Shown: positions 980-63,200 of the stretch, piece after piece | How positions within the stretch are numbered: the stretch's first letter is position 1 | Layout: every line of letters begins with the position of its first letter | Source: Forficula auricularia | Lineage: Eukaryota > Arthropoda > Insecta > Dermaptera > Forficulidae | Reading direction: 5' to 3' | DNA length: 64,000 bases | NCBI GenBank assembly: GCA_024734495.1 | Contig: JALMQS010000085.1 | Location: 16,979,802 to 17,043,801, forward strand | The notes under the pieces: generated by a model | Databases searched by the model: none | Seen by the model: only the letters and a program-made list of their open reading frames with translations | Told to the model about the DNA's origin: nothing | Program-made: the position numbers and the translations under genes

Positions 980-3900
980 CTATATCAAAAATTGAAAAAA
1001 GAAAAAAATGATAATTATTATTTTTTTTTATTTCATAATAATAATATGTTTTTATAGTTTATTATATATACGAACCAAAACCATTATCATTAATTAGCTC
1101 TAAAAAAAGAGGATCATCTTCTTGTATTTCACAATGAAGTAAATAAAATAACTTCCATAGAGTTCTTTCAGAAACAACAGAATAGGGGATGACAGCAAGA
1201 AATTGCCAAGCTCCTAATCTTTGAGAGGAATAAATACAACAAGTAGCTCGAAGGAAGAAAACATCATATTCAACCTGAAGTCGTTGAATCATTGCATGAT
1301 CCTTTATTGGATGATTAGTTCTATATAAAATATTCAAGAAATTAATAAATCATATATATTTGTAATTAGATTAACAAATTTTTTAGGAACCTGAGATGGA
1401 TAATAATATTCAAAACACTATCTATGTAGTATTATAATGTGTTTATTAAATCATGAAAAGACAGACAGTCCATGGTTATGTTTCGCTTTATATACGAGGA
1501 TAAGTCAAAAATTACTTACACTTTTCGTTTTACAACTTTATTAAACTAAGATAGGTGTACAACAGATACATTATTTTTCGATATAGTCTCCAACTTTAGC
1601 AATGCACTTGGTCCAGCGAGCCACAAGCTTCCGGATGCCTTCCTGGTAGAATGTTTTCGGTTGGTCATGAAGCCACTTTTGCACCGCATCCCGAATGTCC
1701 ATGTCAGGTGTGAGGCAAATCGACGAGCTCTCAAAGCTACCTTGAGCGATCAAAGAGATGAAAGTCTGAGAGAGCGAGATCTGGGCTGTAGGGAGGGTAT
1801 TCCAGGGTCTCAAAGCGTCTCAGAGTTGACGGTCGCCCAGCTGCCTCTTTTTGTGTTACGCTCGTTCGGCCACTTTTAAACATTTCGATCCATAAAAAAA
1901 CGCTTTTAAGAGATAAAGCACTTTCCCCGTATTGTGACAAAAGTCTCCGGTGAATTTCAGCACCTTTCACACCCTGTGACCACTCCTCATTGTTCCTCTT
2001 TGGTGCAATCTGATAGCGGAGCTGACATGTTTATGCTGTTGTAGCTAGACGATAACTGAACTGACGCGATCGTAATTAAATTCCTCACACGTGACCACAG
2101 ACGCGCCAACTCAACGCATGTGCATGCGGCGGCCTCCTATCTTAGTTTAATAAAGTTGTAGAACTTATCTTCCTTAAATGTTCATTGCGGACTCTATCTC
2201 TTAGTGTTTTCCCCTGTATAGTTCTAATTATCCTCATCTCGGTTCTTCTGAGAAGTTGTTGGGTGGAAATTGTTTCTGCAGCATATGTCAACACTGGGCG
2301 CATGCTTGTCTTATAAATGCGAACTTTGCTCTCTGCTGACATTTATCTGTTTCGCCATATTAAATTGTTCAAGCAGCCGGATATTCTGGCCCCTTTAGTC
2401 ACCTGAGTTTTGACCTCTTCTCTCAAATTCCTATTGCTCGAAATGAACAGCCAGACCAAGAAAGATACCCTGGTCCTCCAGGTTGGAGGGTTGGGGCGTA
2501 GGGTGCTCTACGCGTTCCAAACCCTATCTCACTGCTAGAGAATTCCAGGGAACTCGAACGCTCATACAGAACAGAAAACTCTGCCTGCATCTCCTGACAG
2601 CGTCTCCGGGTCTTTTTTGAGTTACCCCGACGAGCTTACTCATAAATGAGTGGGCCCGACAAAGGAAATAAAGCCTGATTGATTTACAACAATAACTAGG
2701 TATGTAATAAATTAAAATAAAAACATGCAAATTATAACTCCAGTTTTCAACTAATAATAACATGTCTCATACAGAATATTTGCTAATTATAATCAATGAG
2801 TTTATTAAAAAAAGAAAATAATTTTTATTTTTATTGTCTGTTAATATCTCTTTTTTGTTCTCAGACGGGCACTGAAGATGCTATTATAAAGCGAAACAGA
2901 ACCATGGACTGTCTGTCTTTTAATGATTTAATAAACACATTATAAGGTAACGGCAGCAGTAGTTGACCGTGCTCCAGTAGTTGACCATTTTGACATAAAT
3001 CTTTAATTAATAAGGATCCAGATGGAAGGATTCCCTTGAAAAATATCTATGGACACTGGACAGCAGGACCTGTCCATAGATTTTTTTCAAGGGAATCCTT
3101 CCATCTGGATCCTTATTAATTAAAGTTTTATGTCGAAATGGTCAACTACTGGTGCACGTTCAGCTACTGCTGCCGTTACCTTAATACTACACAAATAGTG
3201 TTTTGAATATTATTATCCATCTCTGGTTCCTAAAAAATTTGTTAATCTAATTACAAATATATAAAATATAAAGGAACTTGCCATATATAAGTTACAATAA
3301 TGAATAAATCATTTTAAAAAAGTCAAAGTATTTTGACATTACCTGAACAGTATCCAGATATCAGTGACATACTCAATAACTTGACGAATTAAAAGCCCAA
3401 GCCTTTTAGTCAATTGTCTGTAACGAGGAGTATCATATGTTCGAAGTCCCTGTTGGAGGATCCTAACCAGTACAGTTGAAAAAGCTAACAACTTTAGTAG
3501 GTGATGTTGACTGAGAGATTTCAAATTTGGCTGATCCCTATTAATTTCAAATTAATCAGTATAAATTTTACAAAAATAATTTAATTAAATTTTTGTGATA
3601 AAATTACATGTTATCTCTTCGCTCAATAAAAAGAATAAGTCTAAATAAACTATCCATAGACAACTGATTAAGTAGCGATACTAAATCGTTTTCTTTTAGA
3701 ATAGACCAACTCTTTTTGTTTATATCTTCATCTTCTTCTCCTTCAGAATCGACTAATACCCAAACACTATCATGATCTTGACCACAATATTGAACCTAAG
3801 TAATAAAGAAAATGAATTAATTAAATACTTAATAATATTATAATCTCTATGAATAATATACATACTTATAAGTAATTAAATGAAAGGCTTATTTTTCAGC

Positions 3901-6900
3901 AGTTTTATTTATTTATCCAAATATTTCGGAAATTTTGTGCAATATTCCTTCTTCAGTGGACCTATTTCTTGTGCAAATACAATAATAGATTTTTAGGTAT
4001 GGTTGGATTTAAATTAAAAAACTTTTTTTAAATATATTACAAGTTGAGATGTTTGTTTTAAATTACCTCACCCAAAAAAATCACCGTACTTGTTCAGTCT
4101 TCACAAAAATTAGGATACAGGGCCACAAAGACATTTCAATTTATTATTCTTAATTCTGCCCTTAAAACAATAACAATTTTTTTCTTTTCCTTTATACCTT
4201 CAAAACCGGGGTGCATAAACACCTACGTCTCCACCCTCTCACTTAATCAACTTTCCATTCTCTTCGGTAATGCAAGGGTCTTTCGAGATCCATAGGGGCT
4301 GCATCTTTACTGGTACGCCCCTTCTTGCATTCGATTGCATTAAAAAAAAATATATATATAAATTTGTTTTTGATGCTTTAAAGCAGTGTCCCCCTGGGAG
4401 GCCGCGAAGCCTTAGTAATTAATATATCAATACTTTTTTACTGTTTTTGTGTTTTTTACTATATGGTAAAAAAAAATGAAAAATTGTACACAAAGTCACG
4501 AGCCGGTCCTCTCAGCCCAGTGGGCCTGGCAGACCCGGTTCGTGACTTTGTGTAGGTTTATTGATGGTTTATAATACATTTTTCAATAATTATATTTTTT
4601 TATTAATTAATATCAGGATTTATAAAAATGAATAATAAATCAATACTTTTTTACTGTTTTAATATATTTAATATAGAAAAAAAATGAAAAATTGTACTCA
4701 AAGTCACGAGCTGGGCCTCTCAAACAGCGGGGGGTAGGGGGTCGCGAAATTTTTCTTCATACTAAGGGGGGTCGCGTCATGAAAAAAGTTGAAAAACACT
4801 GCTTTAAAGAACAAGTCAATCAATACACTTTTTTTTTTTTTTTAATGCAATCGAATGCAAGAAGGGGTGTACCAGTAAAGATGCAGCCCCTATGGATCTC
4901 AAAAGACCCTTGCATTACCGAAGAGAAAGGAAAGTTGATTAAGTGAGAGGGTGTAGACGTAGGTGTCTATGCACTCCGGTTTTGAAGGTTTGAAGATTAT
5001 AAGTGCTGGGAAAGATGGAGGCTGGGAGGGAGTTCCAGTTCCTTGAAGTCATGGGGATATATGTATTGGCGAATGAAGTGGTCCAGCACTTTTCCAATTT
5101 GACCGCGAAAGAGTGTTGGGAGTCGGCAAAACGCGTGCTACGTGCAAAGCATGCTTTGGGGGGAATTATTGATTTTATCTCATCAGAGCACCTGCCGTGA
5201 TAGTATCTATAGAAAAGGGAAAGGGCAGAGACATTTCTTCGATGAGCCAGTGAGTCGAGGGAGTCGGTGAGGGTAGAATCGTCAATTAGCCTGACGGCTC
5301 GTTTCTGAATTGCATCAAGGGTAGCAAGAGAATATTTTGAGGCTCCTCTCCACAGATGAGAGCCGTATTCGAGACAGGGGCGGATTTGGGCCTTGTAGAT
5401 GGTGAGAAGTTGTGGGGGTTTGTAAAATCGCTTGGACCTGAATAAGAAGCCAATCTTCCTTGCTGCAGATTTCGCAACAGAGGAGATGTGTTCATTCCAA
5501 GACAGGTCAGATGCGACAGAGACGCCCAACATGGATAGGCTGTCACACATTTTCAGGGTATTCGAATCGAAGTGAATATCTGGGAAATCTTTATTTTCGC
5601 GCCTAGAAATTAGACAACATTGGGTCTTGTTTGAATTAAAGTTAACTAAATTTTGAGAGCCCCATTTATTCAGTTTGTCTAGGTCGAGAGTAATTGAGGA
5701 GGCAACATTGATTCGATTATTCGGGAGTGAGGGTTTGCCGTGTAGAGTGCTATCGTCGGCGTAACGTGGGGTTTGCCGTTTGATCAATAAGGTCGTTTAT
5801 ATAAATTAGGAAGAGTGTGGAGGAGATTACGGAGCCTTGGGAAACACCAGAGTTTGTGGAGAACGATTCAGATGATGTTCCATCCACCACAACTTTTATA
5901 CTTCGGTTTGTCAGAAAGCTTTCTATCCATTTGCGAAGTGTTGGTGTGAATCCAAAGGCTGGCAGTTTGGCAAGAAGATTTTTGTGCCAAACCTGGTCAA
6001 AGGCTTTGGAGATATCAAGGGCTTTAGCGAGGGTTTCTTTTCCGGCCTCTAGGGCAGCGCTTCTTAAACTTTGTTCATTCACGAACCCTTTTAATCATCG
6101 AGATTTTTTCGCGACCCCAGAAATTAAATTTAATATCAAGATATAAATATTTTCCCATAGACAATTTATTTTTTTTATATATATTTTATATTTTATAGTA
6201 TACTTACATAATTATGAAACAAAGTAGTTTTAGGATTGGATTCAAGTATACAGAAATTAATGAAAGAAAACCACGTTTTAATAAGATAGGTGTGCGTGTT
6301 TTTGCGGTACAACAAATTTATATGGCAGGTGATTAATTTCATTAAGGTTAATCAAACATGGTTTACAGAAAATGTTATATATTAAATTAAAGATAAATAA
6401 ATTAATACGACTAATTTCTCTTTAAATTCATGTATATGCATTAAATTTTCACGACCCCAACATTTAGCTTTGTGACCCCGTTTGGGGTCGCGGCCCATAG
6501 TTTAAGAATTGCTGCTCTAGGGTATTGTTCCAGGGGCGGGTGAAGGGTGGAATAAGGAAAATTATATTTAAAATTAAATCTTTTATTTTTAAATTAAAGG
6601 AGGTCGTTGACTGAAAGCAAAAAATAGGTAATTAAAAAATGTCTTAATTGAACTGTAGTCTCTTTACCCTGTTTATAGTGGGGTTGGGCTTTTTTGATTG
6701 AGTTTCGAGAATGGAAATTTTTTTTACCAACTTAATAATTGATTTTTTGCTCTCAGTCAACGACCTCCTTTAATTTAAAAGTAAAAGATTTAATTTTAAA
6801 TATGATTTTCCTTATTCCATTAGTGTATTGATTGACTTGTTCTTTAAAGCATCAAAAATAAATTTATATAAAGGAAAAGAAAAAAAATGTTATTGTTTTA

Positions 6901-9676
6901 AGGGCAGAACTAAGAATAACAAATTGAAATGTCTTTGTAGCCCTAATTTTTGTGAAGACTGAACAAGTACGGTGATTTTTTTTGGGTGAAGTAATTTAAA
7001 ACAAACATTACAACTTGTAATATATTTAAAAAAGTTCTTTAATTTAATATCTAACCATACTTAAAAATCTATTATTGTATTTGCACAAGAAACAGGTCCA
7101 CTGAAGAAGGAATATTGCACAAAATTTCCGAAATATTTGGGTAAATAAATAAAAAAACACCATTTAAAATTAAAAAAAATCAACTGGTGTGTTCATCACA
7201 CGACTTTCACATTTTCATTTATTTGAAGTCATCGCGACACTACTAATTTACACCCCCTTCCTTTGTTTCGTTTTTTTTTTTTTGATTTTCTCAAAAACGA
7301 CTCTAACGATTTTTTTAAAAATTAGTGTATTTATCAAGTGTCATGAGTTAATAGTTGTGTCAAATTTTTAATCCGAATTAAAGGAAGGGGTTGTAAATTA
7401 GGAGTGTCGTAAAATAAATATTTTAATCGTTCATATCTCGTCTTCGGAAAGTCGCAGAGCCTTGCAATTTGAAAGTTAAGCTATCTAGAGGCTACAAGAA
7501 GTATAACAAGATTTTGGCTAAAATAGAAAAACCGGAAGTTGATGTTTGCGTATGTAAGAATGTACCCACCTGCGTTACGCAACCATAAGTCTCAGAGATA
7601 GGAAATTTGAAAGTTAAGCTGGATATAGGCTAGAAGCAGTTCAGCAAGCTTTTGGTTGAATTCGGAAGATCGGAAGTGGACATTTACATGAAAGAATTTT
7701 CGTTTTTTTTTTCTCAAAAACGGCTCTAACGATTTTTTTAAAAATTAGTGTATTTATCAAGTGTCATGAGTTATTAGTTGTGTCAAATTTTTAATCCGAT
7801 TGAAATAAAGGAAGGGCGTTAAAGTAGGAGTGTCGTGGCGCGCGGCTAGACACTCCTAAATACACTAATTTTTAAAAAAATCGTTAGAGCCGTTTTTGAG
7901 AAAAATATGAATGAAATAAACGAAGAGGTGTAAGTTAGTAGTGTCGCAATGACTTCAATTAAATGAAAATGTTAAAGTCGTGTGGTGAACACACCAGTTG
8001 ATTAAATTAGTATATTTATCAAGTGTCATGAGTTATTAGCTGTGTCAAATTTTTAATCCGATTGAAATAAAGGAAGGGGGTGTTGCAGTGCGATGAATAT
8101 AATTGTGAAAGTAAAAACTGCTGAAAAATAGGCCTTTCATTTAATATAACTTATAAGAATGCTCAGCACCACCGTGAATCGAAATATACATACTTGTTCC
8201 AAAAATTGTTCTCTTTCTTTAACAGGATATAATATTGTTGCAAGAACAGCAATAAAATGATTTACATATTGTGAAGAAAAGGGTAAGGATCGATCAGATT
8301 CCTGATGAAAATCTGGCATGGGGGTTTGAATAAAACCTGCACCCCATGATCCGATTCCTGCAGGACATCTTAAAATGTGATGTAAAAGAAAAAGATGATC
8401 TTTCCAGGTACCAATCCTTAAAAGAACCGCAACAAGTCTACTTAACCATTCTCTTGAATCAGATACAAATAATTTATCTTTGATATGTCGTCTTTGAAAT
8501 CCAAACAAAATGGATATACAATTTTTAATTTCTTGAATGGAATGTTGAATATGACTAGATGTATTAATATTTAAAATCACTGGAGAATTGTGAGGCAATT
8601 TGGATAATTCTGGGCAGGAGAATGCCACTGTTTGAATATAATTTTCTATTTGAAGGCGAAGAACTTCTGAAGAATAAGAATTTAATGATTGTATATCATT
8701 AACAATTTCTTTAATTGCTGCCAAATTTTTAGTCAGATCTAAAAGTGCGGAGTGATTAAGTTTCGATATTTTATATTCATGAGAAGCAGACACAGGATTT
8801 CCATCTTGGCATTCTCCAGATTCAGAAACCACACTTGTTTCAACAATCCATAAATTATTCTGTTGTTCCTTTAGTTCTTTTTTAAGTGTTTCTAGTTCAA
8901 TACCATTACTTATGAGTTTATTTCTGGATCTTAGATAACTGATAAGTAATTCATGTAATTTATGCTGGCTTTTTCCTGATCTAAGATAGTTTTCAATGAA
9001 TTCAGAAACAACATCATTGTGTTGACTAAGTTCTTCATTGCAGTATAATGCTGACAGTTGAATTTCGGTATATGGTTTAATTTCTTGAACAGCGTGAACA
9101 TGTAGTTTATCTTCTATTGGCTTAGTAAGAGAGTTAATATAAGATGTTTGTAAAGAGGTAACTTCTGAATAGTCAGATTTAACATTGATTCTTAATTCGG
9201 ATTCGACAACTGGAGCTGAAGCCTGAATCAACTTTCTCGGTGTCGTGAAAACGGTGTCTTCTTCTTGTTTCGAAGAGGCTGAATCTGAATATGCTTGTAT
9301 TTCTTGTAATTCAGTTTCACACAAAGAAGATTCAGACAAAGGAATGGGTTTCGATTTATTTGAAAAGGTAGATGGTTCATCATTTAAAAGACTTTTAATC
9401 CCTTCTGTTATATTAACATTGGAGATGTCTTTAACAGCGTCCGATATTTTACATTCAACATTATCACCCTCAAATTCTAATGATTTCGATTCATAACCCT
9501 CAAATTCTTCAATTTTTGGAGGTTTAGGTATATTATTTTCCAAATCATCTTGAGTATGAGCGTGACGTTGTTTTTTACTTATCTGTTGAAAAATTAGTTT
9601 TATTTTATTAAAAAATATTAATATTTTAACCAATTGAAAGTAATACCTTTATTTTATGTCTTTCCATTTCAGCCAT
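804..9676 (-). CDS. EPG5: EPG5 homologue (ectopic P granules protein 5), 5' part of gene, six coding exons, continues past left edge
   Basis: EPG5 is a large (about 2,500 residues in animals) Rab7-binding tether that drives fusion of autophagosomes with late endosomes/lysosomes. Coding exons, in gene order: 9647-9676, 8194-9582, 3608-3795, 3343-3537, 1076-1320, 804-979. All junctions have GT/AG borders and compatible phases (0,0,2,2,1,0), giving one open frame of 774 codons. The N-terminal about 300 residues are acidic and low-complexity, as in the family. Conserved blocks then appear in the family order: LLHHILRCPAGIGSWG, VWVLVDSEGEEDED, LKLLAFSTVLV with RYRQLTKRLG, then AEVFYLLSTFANMA. Recognition is by my memory of vertebrate EPG5. 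The remaining roughly two thirds of the protein should lie to the left. Introns 2 and 4 are filled with transposons; introns 1, 3 and 5 are only 64-96 bp, the likely ancestral intron size. Confidence 0.9.
1076..1320 (-). CDS. EPG5: EPG5 coding exon 5
   Basis: The acceptor TTTTATATAG precedes AACTAATCATCC. The exon encodes LQVEYDVFFLRATCCIY and GAWQFLAVIPYSVVSERTLW, both typical of EPG5. The donor is probably GTTCGT after TTTTG (end 1076). A second GT six bases upstream (GTTTTG) would give the same phase and remove two codons, so the 3' border is uncertain by 6 bp. It joins exon 6 in phase 1. Confidence 0.82.
1441..1490 (-). ncRNA. Truncated hammerhead-like motif (E1, left arm)
   Basis: The minus strand carries the 3' half of the motif: AAAGC, GAAAC, the CCATGGA loop, CTGTC and TGTC. 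The CTGAAGA half is missing because mariner sequence starts at about 1491 in the stem II loop TATA. The mariner insertion, with deletion, therefore destroyed this ribozyme copy. Confidence 0.5.
1491..2160 (-). mobile_element. Internally deleted mariner-like transposon
   Basis: The minus strand encodes broken pieces of a mariner transposase. An N-terminal piece (KGAEIHRRLLSQYG, then KSVFLWIEMFKSG) lies near 1810-1970. It is fused after a deletion to the YPPYSPDLALSDFHLF catalytic-region motif, and a C-terminal piece (WLHDQPKTFYQEGIRKLV) lies at 1580-1690 in another frame. The segment AACTTTATTAAACTAAGATA near 1535-1556 recurs inverted near 2137-2157 and forms the inverted ends. It cannot encode an active protein. 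Confidence 0.75.
2142..2410 (-). pseudogene. LINE reverse-transcriptase C-terminal fragment
   Basis: The minus-strand frame contains KVRIYKTSMRPVLTYAAET followed by MRIIRTIQGKTLRDRVRN. This pattern (K.RIYK....P..TY..E, then EMR.LR.I.G.TL.DR.RN) is typical of the C-terminal region of insect RTE/craniofacial-development-protein-like retroelement ORFs. An in-frame stop separates it from upstream residues (TKGARISGCL). Sequence to about 2680 may belong to the same or another LINE end. Confidence 0.65.
2868..2917 (+). ncRNA. Hammerhead ribozyme-like motif with a complete stem III (E1, right arm)
   Basis: Core CTGAAGA is at 2872-2878, then one extra T. Stem II is 2880-2892 (GCT/AGC) and GAAA is at 2893-2896. 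Stem III is a real hairpin: ACAG 2896-2899 pairs with CTGT 2909-2912 around a 9-nt loop. C2913 is the predicted cleavage nucleotide. Stem I is GGCA 2868-2871 with TGTC 2914-2917. It matches the type I hammerhead layout except for the extra base before stem II, and is the only copy here able to fold as a monomer. Confidence 0.65.
2945..3183. mobile_element. Near-perfect palindromic MITE
   Basis: AAGGTAACGGCAGCAGTAG at the left end is matched inverted by CTACTGCTGCCGTTACCTT at the right end. The arms (about 115 bp each) read through GGATCCAGATGGAAGG and its complement, with only a short centre around 3060-3070. It is inserted in the right arm of E1, so it is younger than E1. Confidence 0.8.
3343..3537 (-). 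CDS. EPG5: EPG5 coding exon 4
   Basis: The acceptor AATTAATAG precedes GGATCAGCC and the donor GTAATG follows TTCAG. The frame reads MDQPNLKSLSQHHLLKLL, then RYRQLTKRLGLLIRQVIEYV. This is a conserved EPG5 segment (family pattern LL..G..TY...RYR...KR). Intron 3 to its left neighbour in the gene is only 70 bp. The phase-2 end joins cleanly to exon 5 and completes an arginine codon. Confidence 0.88.
3608..3795 (-). CDS. EPG5: EPG5 coding exon 3
   Basis: The acceptor TTACTTAG precedes GTTCAATATTG and the donor GTAATT follows AACAT. The exon encodes VQYCGQDHDSVWVLVDSEGE..EDEDINKKSWSILKENDLVSLL. Vertebrate EPG5 has a matching acidic W-x-LVDEGGEEDED segment immediately after the block in exon 2. 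It starts in phase 0 and ends in phase 2. No long open frame starts with ATG here, so it is easily missed without splice analysis. Confidence 0.88.
3916..3960 (-). ncRNA. Hammerhead-like motif (E2, left arm)
   Basis: Minus strand: stem I TCCA (3960-3957), CTGAAGA (3956-3950), one extra A, stem II GGAA..TTCC, GAAA (3927-3924), then the palindromic stem III strand AUAU, U at 3920, and stem I TGGA (3919-3916). Stem I is a perfect 4 bp. The CG of other families is replaced by UA inside stem III, a compensated change. Confidence 0.6.
4199..4350 (+). repeat. 5'-truncated LINE 3' end with A-rich tail
   Basis: This is the reverse complement of 4840-4990, the 3' end of the LINE on the other strand. 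It ends GATTGCATT followed by an A-run and TA repeats. I infer a second, short, oppositely oriented insertion of the same LINE family. Confidence 0.6.
4384..4801. mobile_element. Small non-autonomous hAT element with perfect 8-bp TSD
   Basis: The element starts CAGTGTCCCCC and ends with the inverted CACTG. It is flanked on both sides by CTTTAAAG (4376-4383 and 4802-4809), the 8-bp duplication of the hAT superfamily. The undisturbed site is visible in the other arm of E2 near 6845 (TTCTTTAAAGCATC). It has no coding capacity. Confidence 0.85.
4820..6540 (-). pseudogene. Jockey-like LINE, 5'-truncated, reverse-transcriptase ORF broken
   Basis: Read from high to low coordinates, the RT fragment shows LDISKAFDQVWH, GFTPTLRKWIESFL, SGVSQGSVISSTLFLIYIND, then a frame change near 5755 into YADDSTL (the catalytic YxDD box). 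It continues through NSNKTQCCLISRR, LEYGSHLWRGAS and AIQKRAVRLI to a stop at 4939. A T-run at 4831-4842 is the reverse-strand poly(A). A hAT element (6055-6514) splits it near its 5' end, and the frameshift makes it inactive. Confidence 0.85.
6055..6514. mobile_element. Non-autonomous hAT element inside the LINE, 8-bp TSD
   Basis: CTCTAGGG flanks both sides (6047-6054 and 6515-6522). The terminal inverted repeats are CAGCGCTTCTTAAACT and, at the right end, the complement of CAGCAATTCTTAAACTA. It is 460 bp, AT-rich and has no ORF. It inserted into the jockey-like LINE after that LINE arrived in E2. Confidence 0.88.
7097..7141 (+). ncRNA. Hammerhead-like motif (E2, right arm)
   Basis: Plus-strand mirror copy: TCCA 7097-7100, CTGAAGA 7101-7107, stem II 7109-7129, GAAATATT 7130-7137, then TGGG. 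The core is identical to the left arm. Stem I has one G-U wobble. Predicted cleavage is after 7137. Confidence 0.6.
7156..8105. repeat. Fold-back element in the right arm of E2
   Basis: The segment starting CAACTGGTGTGTTCA (about 7179) recurs inverted near 7985-8000. The inner modules TCAAAAACGGCTCTAACGAT and AGTGTATTTATCAAGTGTC occur several times in both orientations (7280, 7720, 7870, 8010). It separates the hammerhead arm from the outer end of E2 (AACTGCTGAAAAATAGG). Confidence 0.6.
8194..9582 (-). CDS. EPG5: EPG5 coding exon 2
   Basis: This exon has 463 codons in phase 0. It opens with the basic ISKKQRHAH and continues with a long acidic/serine-rich region (about residues 20-200). A predicted helical region precedes the first strongly conserved block near its end, LFLLHHILRCPAGIGSWG, followed by YPVKEREQFLEQ. 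The donor GTATGT follows GAACAA. It lies only 36 bp from the right end of the mobile element that fills intron 2. Confidence 0.88.
9647..9676 (-). CDS. EPG5: EPG5 coding exon 1 (start codon)
   Basis: Ten codons, MAEMERHKIK, ending AAG before the donor GTATTA. The 64-bp intron 1 ends TTTTTCAACAG and joins exon 2 in phase 0. An alternative methionine lies inside the retained intron 1 reading frame at 9633, but using it would mean reading through a good donor/acceptor pair. The MAE start, the basic stretch that follows and the splice signals make this start more likely. Confidence 0.75.
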
Positions 9677-15664: not shown

Positions 15665-18600
15665 CTGAAAATTTATTAAAAAAATTTTTAACATCCGATT
15701 ATGTAGTTTATTCAAGAAAAGTATTGCGCATACCCACAATGTCATTTTCCCTTGCCTATGAATATATAAAATTAGATTCAACTGCTGTTGGTGAATACAA
15801 GAATTCAAATGTTTTTAAATGAGAGAATCTACCGTCGAAGAAAAAGAAGGTAAAAATAATATCTAGAAAGCAGTAGCTCTTTTATTTTACGAGCCTAGTT
15901 TTAGTATTTATTAATCTTTTTAAGATTTCTTTTGGACAGCGCTATACAAGTCTTTAAGTACAATATTCCAGGAGACCAGGGTATCATTCTATTACAAGGA
16001 GACAAGGAATTGGGGTTTTCTAGAACAATCACAATTAATTGATAATTTCTCTCCTGGACTAAAACTTGTCAGGACTTGTCTTTTAGATATTTGCACGTTC
16101 TTACATGTCAATAGATAATGAATAGTCAGGGATTATTATATCCGTGACCCTTTTAAAAATAAATTATCATTCCTCATATCCTTCTTTAATCACATTCGAT
16201 TTAAACCAGGGCTGTTCAACCCGTGGCCCAATTCAAAGTCAGAAAATTATTTAAAACATTGAGATTTATATGTAGATACTGGAAAACACACAACAATTTG
16301 GCCTGGTATTTTTTTTTCTCTAAAATAAGAAATCTGAAAATCTACTGTGAAGTTTTTGAAAAATAAAAGTGAATAACAAAAAATCAAAAGAATTATAATA
16401 TTTTATCCGCATGCTGTGGACAATTTTTTCTTCAAATGTGACCCATGTAAGCCAAAAAGTTGGACATCCCTGGTCTAGCCTCAATCCGGATCGCGATGTT
16501 AAAGGCACCTAAATACTCTCTCCACATATTTTTTTCAATTTCTTCGTTTTCTTATTATTATTATGAAGTATTAGATTAAGTCGTTAGTGACAGAATGTAC
16601 TCCAAATCTAGAAGAAATTTAACATGTGGAAAATAACACACTGGCACTTGATCAGCTTTTCATACTCGTAAACTTAGTATAATTTGCTTGTGTTTCTTTC
16701 TCAATATCTCAAGTTTATCGTATACCTTTGACATCAACCCTAGGTGTCTTAAGTTTTATCCAAAAAGAATAAAACTTCTTAAATAAAATAATCATTTATT
16801 TATATAATTTGATAGATAATTTAATTAAGTAATGGAGAGGGATTCAGCCAATGGGTAGCCTCTGCTAAATAAAAACTCCCAATTATAGAAAACGTTTCGG
16901 CTTTAATTAAATAATGCCATCATCAGTTCCTAAGAGCTGAAAAAAGCGATAGAGCACATAGTAAAATTACAATAAAATTTTTTACAAAAATCCAAACTTG
17001 TTAACTATAAAATTATATCTTACAGTATTAGCGACACAATTAATTTTATAAATAAATTTTCCGCAGGCAGAGTTGTTGTGGATTTTATCATAATATACAA
17101 AATTATATGAATTACAAAATGGTACATAAATCTTGGTGTGCTCTCACTTGATATGCGCAACGTCTCAAGTACAAATATAGCAAATTTCAATTTCATTCAA
17201 TTAATAATAATAATAATTATGAGGACATTGATCTAATTAGGATCACTGACCCCTCACAAACATCTCTCAATCAAAAGATTTCTCAAAATAATTAACAAAC
17301 ATTAAGAATAATCAAAAATTGAATTTGAAATGACAATATTTAAAAATAAAAAATAAAAAATAAATTTTTTTCTTTTCTACCTTTTACAATCCTTTCCCCC
17401 CCTTTCTCAGTGTTTATTATACCTGGGCATCAGTATTTGTCAATATTGACAAGCAAGCATTGCTAAGCCCCATTGGGCTATATTTGTACTTGAGACGTTG
17501 CGCACATCAAGTGAGAGCACACCAAGATTTATGTACCATTTTATAATTCATATAATTTTGTATATTATAGATAAAATCCACATAACAACTCTGCCTGTGG
17601 ACAATTTATTTATAAAATTAATTGTGTCGCTAATACTGTAAGATATAATTTTGTAATTAATAAGTTTGGATTTTTTGTAAAAAATTTTATTGTAATTTTA
17701 CATGTGTGCTCTATCGCTTTTTTCAGCTCTTAGGAACTGATGATGGCATTATTTAATTAAAGCCGAAACGTTTTCTATAATTGGGAGTTTTTTATTCAGA
17801 AGAGGCTACCCATTGGCTGAATCCCTCTCCATTACTTAATTATATACATATACAGCCATCAAAATTGTATCAACTTTGATAGATAATTTCTTAAAATTGT
17901 AAAAATAATGAATAAGAAAGAATTTACCTGAATTCGGAGAATAAAGTAAAAAGAAATAGATGACTAAGGTCGAAAAATTACTAAAATATGACATGTATCC
18001 TCCAACAATTCCTTCCTGGACAGGATAACATATTTCAGAAGCAAGTTCCAAAAATAGTGAGGTAGCCCAGGAGAAAGATATTCCCACCATGATTGCGAAT
18101 GTAAATTGAGCTTAAAAAATCCAATTGTTTTGTATAAGAACAACTTCGTTAATATGAAAGATTATATTAAAAAGAAATGAAAAGAATGAAATATATATCT
18201 CGCAGAACTTTATTTATTAACAAAAGTTGCTAATTATTAACAAAAGTTGCTAAAGCAAAATATCTTTTAATTAAAAAACTGAAAAAACATGCTTCTAAAA
18301 AGTACAAAATAATGTAATACTTTTTTTGCTTAGAGAAAGTGTGTAGGTTTTAGGTGAAACATGATATTAATTAATAGTAAAGCGGTGTGTAGTTTCACAG
18401 TGAATGAAATAAAACTCAAAGAGGTTTATACAAACTCAATATATTTCGGATTATTAGTCCATCATCAGGAGTTTACAGATTAAAAACTAATTAATAAAGT
18501 AAAGGGAGTGTAATTTCACAGTGAATGAAATAAACTCAAAGAGTTTTTAATCTGTAAACTCCTGATGATGACTAATAATCCGAAATATATTGAGTTTGTA

Positions 18601-21600
18601 AAACCTCTTTGAGTTTTATTTCATTCACTGTCAAACTACACATCTTTATTTTATTAATTAATGTAATACTTAATCAAAAAGTGTGGAGCGCAGAAACATT
18701 TAATTAATAAAGTAAAGGGAGTGTAGTTTCACAGTGAATGAAATAAAACTCAAAGAGTTTTTAATCTGTAAACTCCTGATGATGAACTAATAATCCGAAT
18801 ATATTGAGTTTGTATAAACCTCTTTGAGTTTTATTTCATTCACTGTGAAACTACACTTCCTTTACTTTATTAATTGATATAATACTTAATCAAAAAGTGT
18901 GGAGCGCAGAAACTTTTAATTAATTTCGACAAAGTGCCTCACGCTTTTTGATTAAGTATCACATTATTTTGTACTTTTTAGCAGCATGTTTTTAGTTTTT
19001 TTTAAATATAATTTATTTTTTACTTTTTAGTCTTAATTATTTTTATAGAGAAAAGTTTGCGGAATTTAACAGAATGCAATGTATTTATTTTTATTATTTT
19101 TACTAGTTGCAAGACCGGCCTTCAGCGGCCCTTCTGCTGGTCAGGGGCTATACCCCTTAGACCCCCACCACCCCACAACCCAACCCGCCCCCATGCAACC
19201 ACCACGACACTGCACTCCCCGCTACGCCCCCTGGACCCTCACCCCAGTACCACACCCGCGCACTACCCCGCTACGCCCCGGACCCCACCCAGCACCCCGC
19301 AAAAATATGCAATATAAGATTTAACCCACAGTATCCCAGGTGCATGATGATCCTGGGTCGTATGTGGCGGCAAACAAAATATGCAATTGCATAGGAATCC
19401 GGTCTTTACTTATTAGCTATTACATTATTAACTATTCAATGGCCAAAAATATTTTGTCATTTAATGATGTTGATCTTTATTACTCAAGTCTCGATATTTT
19501 CAAGGAACTGGGTAAGGCAACTAGGTAAGAAGTAGGCACCTAACTAGGTAAATAAGTAAATAAGTAATTAACTTAACTAAGTACTTAAGTATAAAATAAA
19601 CTTAAAGAAATTTCTCTAATAATAGGAACACTGAAAATTTCCCGCAAATATGAAAAAGTGAATTGCTAAAAAAATGCGGTAAAATTAAAAGCTCTGGGGT
19701 TACATGACCTCTGGCCCAGTCGCCCCACCCCCAGTTACCCCAGTCCTGACCTTACATAAGAAATAAAAAATAGGACCAAGTGACTATACCTAAAGTAGAA
19801 CTAAAAAGAATAAACATTACTTTTTGATAAGAACTCGCAAAAATTTAGGAAATTTGAAAAAGTCGACTTAATCCCAAAAACTTTTTTGTGACTCAAACAA
19901 ATTAAATCCCAACAAAATCACATCGAATAATCATTTATGCGTTTTTCTTTTTCTTATCCCGTAACGGCTACTATAATGATTTAGGGACGCTGAGACTACA
20001 ATCAGGTCAAATTGATAGGCTACATAGGTACTATAAATAATGCATTCTTAATCATTCTAGCAAGTAATTAATTATATCTAAAAGCAAGTAAGTAATTATA
20101 TCTAAAACTTTATTTTACAACCTTTATGGCTTATACTATAACAACACACAAAACTACACTCTAAAATAAGGAAAATGAGAAATCGCAACCCTTCAAACTT
20201 ATATAATTTATTGACGAATCTACTCAAACCTATCACATAAAAAATTAGAAAAGCTCATAAACAAATTCATTCCTTGTAAATACGTCTTGAAAATTGTAAA
20301 AAAACAGGTTGACGGCAAATTATACAACGATAGGTTGTTTTTTTATCTTTCTTAACAGGACAAAAGTAACGATTTTTTTACTAATTTTCCTCAATCATCT
20401 TTAATAGAGCAATTGTAGTTGGAGATACGTTTTAATTCGTCCTATAATAAATCTGTTTTTGAATAGTATTCTTAACTTAGATGACTCAATCTAGTTAAAA
20501 GATTTTTAAGATAGTTGTTTAACCATATGGGTTTTTTTAGGATTTTTTTTTTGAAATTTAGACAGATTATTATTTAAATACTTCTGCATCGATTGGTGGC
20601 AAAACGAAATTTATGAACAATATAGTTCCTGAGATATTAAATTCCAAAGATAGAGTTTTTCAGACTCTTATACATTGCACTATACAGGGTATCGGAAAGT
20701 TTACATAGATATTTAATTATAATTAAGAAACTCTTCTTACCATTCTTTTTAAAAAATAAACCAATATTAATCAATAACTAATACATTTTTCAAGAAAAAT
20801 TTTAATTCCAGAAGCGTTGCAACACAGTTACTGCAGATAGCACTTAATAAACAATCAGAATAGTTTATTACGATAAAAGTTTACGCTGACCAACAAGCTG
20901 GCAACAACGCATTTAAACTTTAGAAATTTAAACGGGTTTTAAATGAACGTTTTAAGATTTTTTATGGGACGACCACCCCTAAGGTACCCCTTTCCAATAA
21001 AAAAAGAATAATAGAAATCGGTCCACGTGGCAAAAAGTTCTCGCTGAACATACATAAAATAAATAAACAAAATAGTTAGATATCTTGACTATCTTGGAGC
21101 CATAATGAACCAAACGCAGAAAGAATAATTAAAATCGGTTCATAAACAAAGAAGTTATACCTAAACAAACATAACAAAAAAGCTCCAATACCAATGAAAA
21201 ATACGGGACTAATCGGAAACTATACTGAACCCAATGCAAAAAATCATCAAAATCGCTAAGAATTGGCGATAGATATCAGGTGACATAAGTTACAAAAAAA
21301 AAAAAAAAAAATCCAGTCGAATTGAGAACCTCCTCCTTTTTTTGAAGTCGGTTAAAAATTATGAACGAATTTGATAACGTAGGTATTTTGGAAGATATAG
21401 GACTTCTCATTAATCCCTGGCAACTATACAATAGAGTTAGCACCTTTGTTCACTGAATGCCTAACCTAAGAGTTGCAGGCGTCGTTTTATCTCATTAAAA
21501 AATCTATTACTAGATTAGATTCATCCAAGTTAAGTAACTGATTTTATTAGATCTCCTAGGTGAAGCAAAATGTAACAAAGTTAATTTTGATATCTATCTG

Positions 21601-39608: not shown

Positions 39609-39655
39609 AAAAAGACTGATGACGGTGGTGAATGCCCGCCGAAACGTCTCTTTTT
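39609..39655 (+). ncRNA. Hammerhead-like motif, intact core
   Basis: Stem I AAAAAGA 39609-39615 with TCTTTTT 39649-39655 (perfect 7 bp). CTGATGA 39616-39622, extra C, stem II GGTG/CGCC, GAAACGTC 39641-39648. Cleavage is predicted after C39648. The strongest stem I of all copies. Surrounding repeat ends (GAGATAGAAGAAAAT) recur near 41020. Confidence 0.62.
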
Positions 39656-40383: not shown

Positions 40384-40432
40384 AACCGACGTTTCGAATT
40401 TATTCTCTCTTCTTCAGGGTAACAAAAAGTCA
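40384..40432 (-). ncRNA. Hammerhead-like motif (E6, left arm)
   Basis: Minus strand: TTGTTACC, CTGAAGA, shortened stem II (AGAGAGAATAAATTC), GAAACGUC, GGTTTAACAA. Stem I pairs CC/GG and TTGTT/AACAA around a small internal loop. Confidence 0.52.
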
Positions 40433-40471
40433 ATGAAAGTAGTTCAAATCATAATTACTTCCTGTCTCTTT

Positions 40472-40523
40472 TTGTTACCCTGAAGAAGTAGAGAATAGAT
40501 CTCCGAAACGTCGGTTTAACAAA
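40472..40523 (+). ncRNA. Hammerhead-like motif (E6, right arm)
   Basis: Plus strand: TTGTTACC 40472-40479, CTGAAGA 40480-40486, stem II region, GAAACGTC 40505-40512, GGTTTAACAA. The core is intact; stem II is imperfect. Confidence 0.55.
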
Positions 40524-41219
40524 TAAATGTAAAATAATAAAATCTCTATAGTCTTATTTTTTTACAACCACTGTGGACTGCTTTTCAATTGCATATTTAT
40601 GCTGAATTCTTTCAAGTCTAGCTATGTTGGTTTTTTGATTCAGTCTCCAGATTGTTGAAGCATACATTACCACAGATTTAATCAAACTTATGTATAGGTA
40701 TCTGATACAATTGGGGCTCCTAAAAGCTTTACTGTTGCGAAATATGAACCTCCAAGTTCGGTTAGCTTTACTAACCACACGAGTAATATGTTCTATTAAA
40801 CGTGAGCTTTGAGTCAAAGATGACACACCAACGTCTTTGATGGAAGTTACTCTAATGCAATAATAAGAAGTATCGTCCAGATAGTAATTGTATGAGATAA
40901 AATAGTCCTTTTTGAGAATGAAATGGTGAAATATTTGTCAAAATATCAGCATTGAAGATGAATTACTTTATCTTCAACATTGAATTTAATACCTGGTTTT
41001 CACGTGGCTTTACATACACTGCCGAGATAGAAGAAAATGAAATATACTATAAAATGAACCTATAATAAAAAAGTTTTTGGGGGGCGGGGGGAAGGGGGAT
41101 TCAAAAAATAAAACTATCACTATAAGTCCTAATTTAATTATAAGATATTTTCATTATTATAATATATCAGAGGAACAGACTATTAAATGAAAATATAAAT
41201 AAAATGAATGGATATTTAA

Positions 41220-44700: not shown

Positions 44701-44761
44701 TCAATTTCATTCAATCGGTGCAACGATTGTGGAAAAAATCGTGGGCAAAAAAAACATTAAC

Positions 44762-51746: not shown

Positions 51747-51940
51747 TACGGTGATGGCGAACCTATGACACGCGTGTCAATGGTGACAAGTTAAGACATT
51801 TTGGGTGACACGCATTTACGAAAGGTCTTTGCTCAAAAAGAGTCAACAGAGGTTGCGCTCAATTCATAAACTTTTTAATGTAAATAATAATTTAGGTTTT
51901 GTTTTTGAATAAATAAATATATCAAAAATATGTTGTTTTT
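51747..51940. repeat. hAT-like terminal fragment
   Basis: CGGTGATGGCGAACCTATGA followed by CACGCGTG resembles a widespread hAT terminal sequence (CAGTGATGGCGAACCT). No partner end found. Confidence 0.4.
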
Positions 51941-51942
51941 AA

Positions 51943-52037
51943 TTAAGTAATGGAGAGGGATTCAGCCAATGGGTAGCCTCTGCTGAATAAAAACTCCCAA
52001 TTATGGAAAACGTTTCGGCTTTAATTAAATAATGCCA
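51943..52037. repeat. Arm fragment of element E3
   Basis: About 95 bp nearly identical to 16827-16920, including the GAAACG half of the hammerhead-like motif on the minus strand. The CTGATGA half is absent. Confidence 0.75.
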
Positions 52038-52904
52038 TGTTGTTTTAAGGTAGATTTCGAAGCAATATACCTATTGCGCTCACTCTCATGGTGCGACTTC
52101 GGAAAATTTCATCACAGTTTTTCCGATCATGGCCCCTAGAGCCCAAAACCACCCTCCATTCATAAGTTTATATATATATATGTGGGGGGGGTATGTGGGG
52201 GGTATCAATCGTAATTTTGTGGGTGCGCTGCAGGCCGCAAAGTTCAACCTATTGCAATAAAATTTGGCTTAAAATTTAGTCTTGTTGTAAACAAGAACTG
52301 ATTAGTTCTTGGTGACTTCAGCCCCAAGGGAGTGTAAATGGTGGGGGTTGAAATCTTAAAAAAATCATATCAACGTTAATATTAATGATACCAGTTTGGA
52401 TGAAAATGGCTAATATTCTACCAATTAACTTCTACAACTTGTGTCTGAAAAGTTTTTGACAGGAGGAGTCTAAAGGGGGGTAGAGCCCTTTCGAAATCTA
52501 CATCTTCCTACGGCCTGCCACAGGGATGTTTTTTACTACGGCTGCAACTATCACCAAATAGATTCAAATGCAATACACTAATAATAACCCCGAAGGTCAT
52601 CCTAGGCAAGGTAAGTTAAATGAAATTTATAAATGCCAGATTCTAAAAATGTTAGAGGATGTAATAAAAACCATATGTACATAAATTTGCTGAATAAACT
52701 AACATTAAAAAACAAAAAAAAAACACTTGAATATTGAGGTGATACCTACACAACGGGGGTCTCTCACTGGTACGGTAGCCTGAAGTCTATCGAACAGTAT
52801 CACCTCTTTCACTATAAGTTCACCTGCGTCCCACTCGCCTTGCGTCGTGTATCAATTTGATATGTGCATTTTTATTTAACCCTAACTCCCCCTGCCTCTC
52901 CTCT
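52038..52904. other. rough intron, unassigned
   Basis: Locally GC-richer (52100-52550), with a G-run near 52182. No ORF, RNA gene or second copy is seen in the window. Confidence 0.35.
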
Positions 52905-57475: not shown

Positions 57476-57559
57476 AAAATTATAGAATACATTTTCGACT
57501 ATTTAGTTCTTTATCTATTAATAAATTAACATATTTAAAGATAATTATTAAGAAAAAAT

Positions 57560-57840
57560 TGATAGAGTTTTTCTTTAGGAGACGGACTGGTATAAATATG
57601 CAATTGGATGTTGATGAAAGCAGTCCACGGTGGTTGTAAAAAAATAAGATTATAGAGGTTTTATTATTTTACATTTATTTAGTTAAACCGACGTTTCGGA
57701 GAATTATTCTTTCATTGACTTTTTGTTACCCTGAAGAAGGAGAGAATAATTCTCCGAAACGTCGGTTTAACAAATAAATGTAAAATAATAAAACCTCTAT
57801 AGTCTTATTTTTTACAACCACCGTGGACTGCTTTCATCAA
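57560..57840. mobile_element. Element E6, copy 2
   Basis: Nearly identical to 40260-40590: TAGGAGACGGACTGGTATAA, TGGTTGTAAAAAAATAAG and inverted arms. The left arm has lost the CTGAAGA half of its motif. Confidence 0.78.
57723..57773 (+). ncRNA. Hammerhead-like motif, intact core (E6 copy 2)
   Basis: TTGTTACC 57723-57730, CTGAAGA 57731-57737, extra A, stem II GGAGA/TCTCC 57739-57755, GAAACGTC 57756-57763, GGTTTAACAA. Stem I pairs ACC/GGT and TTGTT/AACAA with a two-base bulge. The predicted site follows C57763. The best-preserved short-stem-III copy. Confidence 0.65.
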
Positions 57841-57984
57841 CATCCAATTAAGAAAAAAATCATTTTTGAGACATTTAAACCTTTGCCTTTAAATAGAAGC
57901 GCCGTGGTCCCTGGGAAATGATAATGTGCCCATTTGTAGTGTTCCTTTAAAAAATAAAACTGGACCCTATTTTTGTGGGACTCA

Positions 57985-61145: not shown

Positions 61146-61487
61146 TAAGCAAAACATTTTCATTAATTAGTTTTCTAGATTTTTATTTTCGTTCAAGCAT
61201 ATTTATCTTCATTTATTGAATTGAATTTTTTTAATATTTCAAACAATTTAGTTTTTCTCGAATCATAGCCAAACTTATGTTTCAAGACGCTCTAATGATG
61301 AGGTGCTTTTGGAGAATATTTATAAAAAATTTCTTATCACTAATTCTCCAATTAATTTCCTATAGAAAAATAGACTAAAAGTTCCACAAAGAGAAACAAA
61401 GAGGTTGTCCTCTGCTTGATGCAAATAAACATACACACATATATATCGAGATGATATATCTGTATATATATATAATATTTATTTGTT

Positions 61488-61532
61488 TGAGACTATAGTT
61501 TCGAAGACTTGGTCTTCATCATCAGTCTTTTT
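61488..61532 (-). ncRNA. Hammerhead-like motif, intact core (E7, left arm)
   Basis: Minus strand: AAAGA, CTGATGA, extra T, stem II GAAGAC/GTCTTC (perfect 6 bp), GAAA, stem III strand ACUAUAGU (8-base palindrome), C, TC. Stem I is short (3 bp plus mismatch). Confidence 0.58.
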
Positions 61533-61609
61533 TAATTATAAATGTTGTTTTTCGTGGAGTCAATATCCATACGATATTGACTCCATGAAAAACAACATTT
61601 ATAATTAAA

Positions 61610-61655
61610 AAAGACTGATGATGAAGACCAAGTCTTCGAAAATATAGTCTCAAAC
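61610..61655 (+). ncRNA. Hammerhead-like motif (E7, right arm)
   Basis: CTGATGA 61615-61621, stem II GAAGAC/GTCTTC 61623-61637, GAAA 61638-61641, then ATATAGTC. One stem III base differs from the left arm and breaks the palindrome. Confidence 0.52.
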
Positions 61656-61984
61656 AAATAAATAATATACATATACAGATATATCATCTCGATATTAATA
61701 TATGTGTGTATGTTTATTTGCATCAAGCAGAGGACAACCTCTTTGTTTCTCTTTGTGAATCAACAACTCTGCTACTCTCGGCAAAACAAAAACTTTTCAA
61801 TTAGACTAAAAGGTGGTCGGTCTACAGTTTCATCTGGAATGAGCTTTCAGACATAGATATAATAAAAATAGCTACGTTCATGAATCTAATCGTGAACGTA
61901 TTCTGAATCTTAGTGAATAAGGGTCAAGAGTCCCAGTGAGCAGAACCTCTAAAACTTATACCTTTTCAAAATTAAAATAAAAAT

Positions 61985-62750: not shown

Positions 62751-62829
62751 TAATTGGGATCAATCGAATTTAGAAATAGGATTAATTTTTATTAAAATTG
62801 AAAATTAATTTTTTTTGATTATTTTTACT

Positions 62830-63200
62830 TTGTGACTGGTTATTGCGTACTTGGACTTGAAATAAAATTAGAAGTTAAATTTTCAAAATGTTGCTACGTT
62901 TCGCAGTATATATTTTTTTGCTTTATCTAATATTAATATTATTATCTGTATCAGTTAGGCTTTGTAACGATTGTGTTTTTTAAAAATAGAGTAAAAAAGG
63001 AAAGGACGTCAATGTTTTGGTGAGTCAATTGTTTTAATTGTGATCGATATATGGTGTAATGAGCTATATATAGGTATACTTAGTACGAGAAGGTTAAGTT
63101 TAAATATTGCCCGAGGAAGCAGAAAAATATACTGTGAAACGTAGCATCATTTTGCAAAATTTAACTTGTAATTTTATTTCAAGTCCAAGTACCAAATAAC
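62830..63200. mobile_element. Inverted-repeat element with a hammerhead-like right arm (element E10)
   Basis: GTACTTGGACTTGAAATAAA (left) and TTTATTTC-AAGTCCAAGTAC (right) bound arms that include TGCTACGTTTCGC and GTGAAACGTAGCA. Confidence 0.65.
63107..63147 (+). ncRNA. Hammerhead-like motif, one core base changed (E10)
   Basis: TTGC, CCGAGGA (core U changed to C), extra A, stem II GCAG/CTGT, GAAACGTA 63136-63143, then GCA pairing with TGC. Predicted weak or inactive. Confidence 0.42.

What the first reader, a model, noticed from the sequence alone, without database searches (positions are those of the whole stretch)
2868..63147. Hammerhead-ribozyme-like motifs in about nine unrelated repeat families
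The pattern stem I - CUGANGA - N - stem II - GAAA - short stem III - H - stem I occurs at 2868(+), 3960(-), 7097(+), 16930(-), 17733(+), 18474(-), 18556(+), 39609(+), 40432(-), 40472(+), 57723(+), 61532(-) and 61610(+). Decayed versions lie at 29488(-), 29563(+), 37960(-) and 63107(+). The surrounding repeats share no other sequence, and stem I differs in every family yet pairs (GGCA/UGUC, UCCA/UGGA, GGAA/UUCU, AAACUC/GAGUUU, GGGCCA/UGGCCC, AAAAAGA/UCUUUUU). Compensated variation across families is strong evidence for a selected RNA fold. Type I hammerheads are known in Penelope-like retroelements and retrozymes; the diversity packed into one 64-kb window is unusual.
Basis: partly seen in the sequence, partly recalled or inferred. 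Interest (0 to 1): 0.93.

Follow-up and report, generated by a model that had tools for sequence, protein, structure and literature searches.

The report
Minimal hammerheads in Penelope-type insertions
A stretch of what looks like an insect genome holds about ten families of short mobile elements that each carry a stripped-down self-cutting RNA motif, and the way one of them sits in the genome suggests that both ends of a broken target site were copied from RNA and then stitched together head to head.

Summary
All 13 listed motifs exist; a structural descriptor finds 10 of them against 0.09 per shuffled window. One extra base sets off stem II (CUGANGA-N-stem II); with none or two extra bases the descriptor finds nothing. 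Helix III is mostly absent and replaced by a short palindrome. A model built from 16 viral-contig hammerheads, none from the window, has nine motif sites in its top ten. Rfam's silence is void: it also missed complete hammerheads.

This fits the published minimal type I hammerheads of Penelope-like elements. Five window palindromes have 11-15-bp target duplications and a 27-46-nt tail on one arm only. In the host genome, 44 of 49 best-scoring loci of one family are head-to-head pairs; all 44 have one long and one short outer end, with 40 distinct inner pairs; an intron is present in 2 of 50 rows and absent in most. Best reading: two-ended target-primed reverse transcription of spliced RNA, then end joining. 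Cleavage was not tested; 0 of 88 inner ends lie at the cleavage site. The endonuclease reading rests on a motif only. New member of a known kind.

The parts
2867..2918 (+). Hammerhead f2872; extra base U; only family with a hairpin stem III (ACAG/CUGU, C17)
   Evidence: E 0.46
3915..3961 (-). Hammerhead f3924, left arm of inverted pair with 7101(+); extra A; linker AUAU
   Evidence: chance level (E 2.4)
7094..7144 (+). Hammerhead f3924, right arm; a LINE-like RT fragment lies between the two arms
16823..17874 (.). f16 head-to-head insertion; hammerheads at 16886-16931(-) and 17732-17777(+); 33-nt tail on right arm only; TSD TTTGATAGATAATTT (15) at 16808 and 17875
   Evidence: E 0.06 each
51938..52038 (-). 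f16 copy with one arm, 5'-truncated in loop II; TSD ATGTTGTTTT (10)
18348..18970 (.). f18 element: hammerheads at 18433-18473(-), 18557-18596(+) and 18771-18810(+); the two + copies are a direct tandem of about 214-bp period; linker AUAUAU, stem I 9 bp; no TSD found
   Evidence: E 2.7e-6, 6e-4, 0.02
29362..29667 (.). f29 head-to-head insertion with decayed hammerheads 29446-29487(-) and 29564-29605(+); 13-bp stem I; 27-nt tail on left arm; TSD GATATTTTCAATGTT (15)
   Evidence: chance level
37914..37955 (-). Decayed hammerhead f37960 (C3 changed), linker ACAUGU, extra U
   Evidence: E 0.002
39611..39653 (+). Hammerhead f39616; 7-bp stem I AAAAAGA/UCUUUUU, 5-bp stem II, linker ACGU, C17, extra C
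   Evidence: E 8e-5
40260..40595 (.). f40 head-to-head insertion; hammerheads 40383-40422(-) and 40480(+); 36-nt tail on left arm; TSD TTTATGCTGAATT (13)
57559..57846 (.). f57 head-to-head insertion, same family as f40; hammerhead 57726-57768(+); left arm cut off in loop II; 46-nt tail on left arm; TSD ATTAAGAAAAAA (12)
   Evidence: (E 0.6)
61382..61801 (.). f61 head-to-head insertion; hammerheads 61499(-) and 61615(+); linker ACUAUAGU in the - copy; 44-nt tail on right arm; TSD TAGACTAAAAG (11)
   Evidence: not among the matches
62816..63222 (.). f63 palindrome with decayed hammerhead at 63111(+); linker ACGU; no clear TSD
1432..1492 (-). f2872 second copy, 5'-truncated in loop II

Best explanation
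The motifs are minimal type I hammerhead ribozymes with one extra core base, sitting in the pseudo-LTRs of several families of Penelope-like retroelements, in this window as non-coding, mostly head-to-head copies. How it works. Shown on DNA, in four window families for the first point and in one family genome-wide for the rest: insertions sit between target duplications of 10-15 bp; each arm starts at one of two preferred points downstream of the hammerhead, one arm at the distal and the other at the proximal point; arms run past the hammerhead to variable inner ends and meet at junctions that often share a few bases; most copies lack an intron precisely. Inferred: the element's reverse transcriptase-endonuclease cuts both target strands in AT-rich DNA, primes from both 3' ends on spliced sense RNA at two internal start sites, and the two cDNAs are joined by end joining. 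Inferred from published work: the hammerhead lacks helix III, so two copies share a palindromic helix III and cleave as a dimer, or with help of the element's protein. The inverted copies would bury it in a long hairpin and are probably dead ends. Its role in the life cycle remains open; cleavage does not appear to define the 5' ends of the inserted copies.
For: Fold: 10 descriptor hits against 0.09 per shuffle; independent model from 16 viral-contig hammerheads, E 2.7e-6 and 8e-5 for its best two and nine motif sites in its top ten. As a control the same model scores five complete hammerheads left out of its making at E 3e-9 or better, and the five two-extra-base loci given to it do not appear at E up to 1. 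Stem I differs and pairs in each family; the A15.1-U16.1 linker is palindromic in 8 of 10 families by the script, plus one arm of f29. Extra base: U or A in 9 of 10 families, never G; in the viroid CChMVd the same extra base works best as U and badly as C or G (PMC3705267, passage). Viral contigs: of complete three-stem hammerheads found, 16 sites have no extra base, 14 have one (U in 13), 0 have two. PLE architecture: TSDs of 10-15 bp for 6 insertions; unaligned tail of 27-46 nt on one arm against 0-3 nt on the other in 5 of 5, as described in PMC3846280 (passages) and PMC11167929 (main text). Genome: 44 of 49 loci head-to-head; 44 of 44 with one long (154-159) and one short (80-138, 42 of them 118-130) outer end; 40 distinct inner pairs; 25 of 44 junctions with overlap; 0 of 88 inner ends at the cleavage site. 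Intron in 2 of 50 rows, intronless string found in 43 of 50. A 2.1-kb copy in L106 carries in both arms an ORF with a GIY-YIG-like motif and a hammerhead towards each end.
Against: No profile confirms the endonuclease: Pfam, NCBIfam and PDB searches gave no such match and the structure model of a relative is unusable (pLDDT 31.7). No reverse transcriptase of PLE type was found; the genome searches that could show it did not complete. Only one family (f40/f57) was studied genome-wide, on its best-scoring copies. TSDs were not found for f18, f3924, f63, f2872 or f39616; for f37960 shared 12-bp words are listed that I did not judge. One family (f39616) has the unfavourable extra base C. Several copies score at chance level in the viral-contig model (E 2.4 to 6.1), the f61 copies do not appear at all, and a non-site (41688) reaches E 0.46, as good as 2867. 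In the host sample nine sites also fit the descriptor with two extra bases, all of the f57 family. The published in vitro work sees no difference in start site between strands, whereas here each insertion shows one of each.
Confidence: 0.85

Rival explanations
1. The inverted copies are DNA transposons (MITEs) with terminal inverted repeats that happen to contain the motif.
For: Inverted arms, short length, no ORF of note in the window copies.
Against: Target duplications vary from 10 to 15 bp; outer ends are unequal in 44 of 44 copies and inner junctions differ in nearly all; a GT-AG intron present in 2 of 50 rows is absent precisely in most; a single-arm 5'-truncated copy with its own target duplication exists.
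Confidence: 0.04
2. The head-to-head form comes from self-priming on an antisense template, as proposed for bdelloid Penelope elements (PMC3846280), not from priming at both ends of the target.
For: Same head-to-head arrangement; published proposal (passages).
Against: That model was linked to intron retention, but most copies here are intronless; by my reasoning a fold-back copy would give equal outer ends, whereas one long and one short end occur in 44 of 44; junctions vary, often with short overlaps.
Confidence: 0.12
3. The motif is a structured RNA signal (for binding the reverse transcriptase or starting translation) that resembles a hammerhead but is not catalytic any more.
For: Helix III missing; extra base in the core; cleavage site never an inner end (0 of 88); in the Anolis element catalytic mutants do not change insertion in vitro.
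Against: Catalytic positions incl. G12, A13, A14, U16.1 and H17 are kept across the seven families with an intact core (for f61 only with a 2-bp stem I); complete viral-contig hammerheads carry the same extra base; protein-assisted cleavage shown for the Anolis PLE and, by title only, cleavage of dimers of PLE hammerheads (Lunse et al. 2017, citation).
Confidence: 0.2

Closest known systems
Minimal type I hammerheads of Penelope-like elements (Cervera & de la Pena 2014; Lunse, Weinberg & Breaker 2017)
   Same: Core, open stem I, lacking helix III, palindromic stem III region, location in pseudo-LTRs (as told in passages of PMC7761336, PMC6466107 and in PMC11167929).
   Different: Here an extra base follows A9 in every family; whether published PLE hammerheads have it I could not read (both papers not held). 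Here the copies are mostly inverted, not tandem.
Poseidon PAc element of Anolis (PMC11167929)
   Same: Two internal start sites for reverse transcription, the tail of 30-40 nt between them; main start in an AC-rich stem loop 111-118 nt into the ORF, against short outer ends at +118..130 from C3 here; both target strands cut and extended.
   Different: In vitro no strand difference in start site; here each insertion pairs one proximal with one distal start.
Adineta vaga Penelope pLTR inserts (PMC3846280, passages)
   Same: Inverted pLTRs, 31-bp tail on one of them, TSDs of 8-10 bp, solo pLTR pairs holding unrelated sequence.
   Different: There very few copies and intron retention stressed; here 476 and 1362 first-look candidates in two searches and mostly intronless copies.
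CChMVd plus-strand hammerhead
   Same: Extra base between A9 and 10.1 (PMC3705267, passage).
   Different: A plant viroid; its helix III was not compared here.
Metazoan non-LTR retrozymes (PMC7229834, passages)
   Same: Type I hammerheads in short repeats; f18 has a tandem of about 214 bp.
   Different: Invertebrate retrozymes are described with a helix III and in tandem arrays; most families here have neither.

Membership tests
Hammerhead ribozyme (any type) | CUGANGA ... GAAA core with stems I and II, U16.1 and H17 | tested here: met
   10 hits without and 8 with the U16.1/H17 demand; shuffles 0.09 and 0.02
Hammerhead ribozyme (any type) | Stem II directly next to A9 (textbook core) | tested here: not met
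   0 of 13 sites pair without an extra base; natural precedents CChMVd and 14 viral-contig sites
Hammerhead ribozyme (any type) | Helix III | tested here: not met
   only f2872 has one; 8 of the 10 families, and one arm of f29, have palindromic linkers fit for a shared helix III in a dimer
Hammerhead ribozyme (any type) | Self-cleavage after H17 | not testable with these tools
   needs transcription assays
Penelope-like element | Inverted pLTRs with a 30-40-nt tail on one of them | tested here: met
   5 of 5 window insertions, 27-46 nt; 44 of 44 genome pairs of one family
Penelope-like element | Short target duplications | tested here: met
   10-15 bp for 6 window insertions, none found for five further families; longest shared flank word 10-15 in 31 of 37 genome rows
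Penelope-like element | GIY-YIG endonuclease with Cys-Cys-His-His signature | tested here: inconclusive
   motif read by eye in L106 ORFs (VYMIEC..C..IYIGQT..RLREHE..H..H); signature recalled; no profile hit, model unusable
Penelope-like element | Telomerase-like reverse transcriptase | not tested
   genome searches not answered
LINE / SINE | Poly(A) or simple-repeat 3' tail, single orientation | tested here: not met
   29 of 30 single-arm-query copies end at CTCTATC before unrelated flanks (the query itself ended there); 44 of 49 loci head-to-head
MITE / DNA transposon | Fixed-length target duplication and equal termini | tested here: not met

The most novel reading that the evidence does not exclude
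Two things together. (1) A hammerhead with one unpaired base (mostly U or A) between A9 and stem II is a widespread natural class, shared by insect Penelope-type elements and viral (probably phage) genomes. (2) Penelope-type elements insert by coordinated two-ended target-primed reverse transcription in which one DNA end starts at the proximal and the other at the distal RNA site, which makes the head-to-head form and the 'tail' one and the same signature.
Probability: 0.5. Interest if true: 0.72.

Novelty: new member of a known kind. Interest (0 to 1): 0.5.

Why it matters
How Penelope-like elements insert is an open question in the papers seen here; proposals are target-primed synthesis at an internal site (PMC11167929) and self-priming on an antisense template (PMC3846280). 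A genome with many copies whose outer ends are one proximal and one distal start, with variable stitched centres and a precisely missing intron, makes these proposals testable by counting ends. The extra core base, shared with viral-contig hammerheads and one viroid, gives a simple change to search patterns that may bring in missed ribozymes.

Tried and rejected
Rfam at gathering score and at E up to 10 on the window: no hammerhead. Rejected as evidence, because the same library also missed complete hammerheads of viral contigs: 12 loci, 10 of them with a complete one, at gathering score, and 5 of 5 at E up to 10; L008, L014 and L015 among these have the textbook core.

A different internal-loop motif (GAUG pairing with CGUC, seen in some minimum-energy folds) was dropped: by hand check the pairing fails in f3924, f18, f29 and f40, while N7 is free as in hammerheads.

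Pfam on 20 window ORFs (of 111 stop-to-stop ORFs of 65 aa or more): above the curated cut-off only RVT_1, which I take for a LINE (5753-6094 -), and a homeodomain (63743-64000 +); no PLE domain.

Idea that the palindrome itself is copied as a unit (noted): rejected, because inner ends differ from copy to copy (40 distinct pairs in 44). An apparent constant sum of inner ends in the first 20 loci was put down to the palindromic query and dropped, without a test.

5' truncation in loop II in three families (f2872 copy, f16 single-arm copy, f57 left arm) was noted but not tested against chance.

AlphaFold on the two database relatives of the endonuclease ORF: mean pLDDT 31.7, not used.

Papers: PMC11167929, whole main-text section; PMC7229834, PMC7761336, PMC6155905, PMC6466107, PMC11014351, PMC3088659, PMC6431247, PMC3846280, PMC4918200 and PMC3705267, passages only; others only as search listings. 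Cervera 2014 and Lunse 2017 were not held and are known from citations and other papers' accounts.


Full report
1. The motif is there. Requiring stem II of at least 3 bp and stem I of at least 3 bp gives 10 sites if exactly one base is allowed between CUGANGA and stem II, 0 if none, 0 if two and 1 if three (40417 again); 100 shuffles give a mean of 0.09 and a maximum of 2 for one extra base. With U16.1 and H17 not G also required, 8 sites remain, against 0.02 per shuffle in 60 shuffles. The listed sites that drop out are 2872, which has a real stem III, and 18562 and 40480, whose stem II is damaged; the two f61 copies drop out as well.

2. Two departures from the textbook hammerhead hold across families. 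First, an extra base follows A9: 0 of 13 sites pair without it, 11 of 13 have at least 3 bp with it. By family it is U in f2872, f16, f18, f61 and f37960, A in f3924, f40/57, f29 and f63, and C in f39616. The same extra base is known in the plus strand of the viroid CChMVd, where A lowers the rate moderately, U raises it 3-4-fold, and C or G are bad (PMC3705267, passage). Second, helix III is missing. The linker from A15.1 to U16.1 is palindromic instead: ACGU in f39616, f40/57, f16, f63 and one arm of f29, AUAU in f3924, AUAUAU in f18, ACAUGU in f37960, ACUAUAGU in one copy of f61 (for f16, f63 and f61 this is not the option with the longest stem I). Only f2872 has a hairpin stem III.

3. Relatives elsewhere show that the extra base is natural. 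Three patterns with the same number of fixed bases were scanned in viral contigs, most of them presumably phage (21, 26 and 14 stretches). Complete three-stem hammerheads were found at 16 sites with no extra base, 14 sites with one (U in 13, C in 1), and none with two; the other sites lack a stem by the script's limits (12 and 10 distinct cores). These counts hold for the chosen pattern (GG..CC at the base of stem II, CGUC after GAAA) and are no survey. A covariance model made from 16 of these sequences (11 without, 5 with the extra base), none from the window, was run over the window without filters. It ranks 18557(+) (E 2.7e-6), 39611(+) (8e-5), 18433(-) (6e-4), 37914(-) (2e-3) and 18771(+) (0.02) first. 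Nine of its top ten matches are motif sites, the tenth (41688, E 0.46) is not; weaker copies (3915, 29446, 40383, 29564) score at chance, and the f61 copies are absent. As a control the model scores five complete hammerheads kept out of its making at E 3e-9 or better, while the five two-extra-base loci given to it do not appear at E up to 1.

4. Rfam is no witness here. It gave no hammerhead in the window, but it gave none in 12 loci of which 10 hold complete hammerheads at gathering score, nor in 5 of 5 such loci at E up to 10, including ones with the textbook core.

5. What the sites sit in. Five palindromic insertions (f16, f29, f40, f57, f61) are bounded by exact target duplications of 11 to 15 bp, and one single-arm, 5'-truncated copy of f16 by 10 bp. 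In random 60-nt flank pairs of the window a shared word of 10 or more occurs in 69 of 3000 cases. In all five palindromes one arm has an unaligned outer extension of 27, 33, 36, 44 or 46 nt, against 0-3 nt on the other. [quoted passage not shown] In the Anolis element the tail is the stretch between two reverse-transcription start sites, and the protein cuts and extends both target strands (PMC11167929, main text). No target duplication was found for f18, f3924, f63, f2872 or f39616; for f37960 the comparison lists 12-bp shared words that were not judged.

6. The host genome. The window lies in a 1.06-Gb assembly. One family, f40/f57, was followed there. Two searches, one with the palindrome (20 loci; 1362 first-look candidates) and one with a single arm (30 loci; 476 candidates), each scored 40 candidates and gave the best-scoring copies, 49 distinct loci in all. 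44 of 49 are adjacent head-to-head pairs. In 44 of 44 one arm ends at +154 to +159 from C3 of the core and the other at +80 to +138 (42 of them +118 to +130); none has two long or two short ends. The single-arm query contained the long tail, so it favours one long arm per locus; the palindrome query did not contain it, and there too 20 of 20 are one long, one short. Inner ends form 40 distinct pairs; 25 of 44 junctions overlap, 3 are flush, 8 have up to 3 added bases and 8 more than 3; 8 of the 88 inner ends lie at -131, the limit of the reference arm, so they may reach further. The five loci not counted are L077 and L105 (single arm), L087 (complex) and L097 and L099 (intron and body).

7. 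Intron and coding copy. L097 and L099 carry a GT-AG intron with TACTAAT near its 3' end, whose 3' end lies 3 nt before the core; the intronless junction string is found in 43 of 50 rows. So the templates were mostly spliced sense RNAs, by inference. L106, around L099, is a head-to-head copy of about 2.1 kb between its two hammerheads, with an ORF in both arms reading ...GVLPCNGIYIGQTKRRAVERLREHE...H...H... or a close match. I read this as the GIY-YIG endonuclease of Penelope-like elements; the signature is recalled, no profile search supports it, a database search found only two unnamed relatives, and a structure model failed.

8. Mechanism. Two-ended target-primed reverse transcription explains unequal outer ends, variable joined centres, target duplications and precise intron absence. 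Self-priming on an antisense template, proposed in PMC3846280, goes with intron retention and, by my reasoning as a fold-back, with equal outer ends; neither is seen here. 0 of 88 inner ends lie within +28 to +38, around the predicted cleavage site, so ribozyme cleavage does not seem to define the inserted 5' ends; this agrees with PMC11167929, where catalytic mutants insert normally. In an inverted copy the sense hammerhead faces its own complement, so these copies are unlikely to act; f18, which keeps two direct copies about 214 bp apart, could form the dimer, but its second copy has lost one A of GAAA.

9. How unusual is the window. In 174 kb of held loci of this genome (51 loci, mostly flanks of the f57 family, two of them within the window), the strict descriptor found 58 sites with one extra base, 54 of them f57-like, one the window's own f39616, and three others (L083, L093, L100); none with no extra base; and nine with two, all f57-like. 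The window is richer than that sample, but the sample is not random and the window was chosen for its motifs.

10. Host. The ORF at 8140-9648(-) resembles ectopic P granules protein 5 (one of 34 relatives bears that name, from an ant, 40% identity) and 63743-64000(+) is a homeodomain; an insect is likely, the species is unknown.

Noticed in passing
L002-L004, L006, L007, L009-L013, L017-L020 (viral contigs): Complete three-stem hammerheads with one extra base, U in 13 of 14; nearly as many sites as with the textbook core within the patterns used.
   Followed up: partly
window 25616-28000: Tandem array of about 131-135-bp units, 16-17 copies.
   Followed up: no
L097 and L099: Intron of 112 and about 117 nt whose 3' splice site lies 3 nt before the hammerhead core, so that stem I has a different 5' strand before and after splicing.
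   Followed up: partly
L106: 610(-) and 1892(+): Another inverted pair of hammerhead-like motifs of a further family, 2.4 kb from the f57-family copy.
   Followed up: no
window 2943-3183: A near-perfect palindromic repeat inserted in the tail of the f2872 element; the tail halves match the second copy near 1380-1432.
   Followed up: partly
window 1432-1492, 51938-52038, 57559-57706: Copies of three families are cut off at their 5' side inside loop II of the hammerhead; not tested against chance.
   Followed up: no
window 44232-44706 and 62020-62695: Repeats of about 118-120 bp present in both direct and inverted orientation.
   Followed up: no
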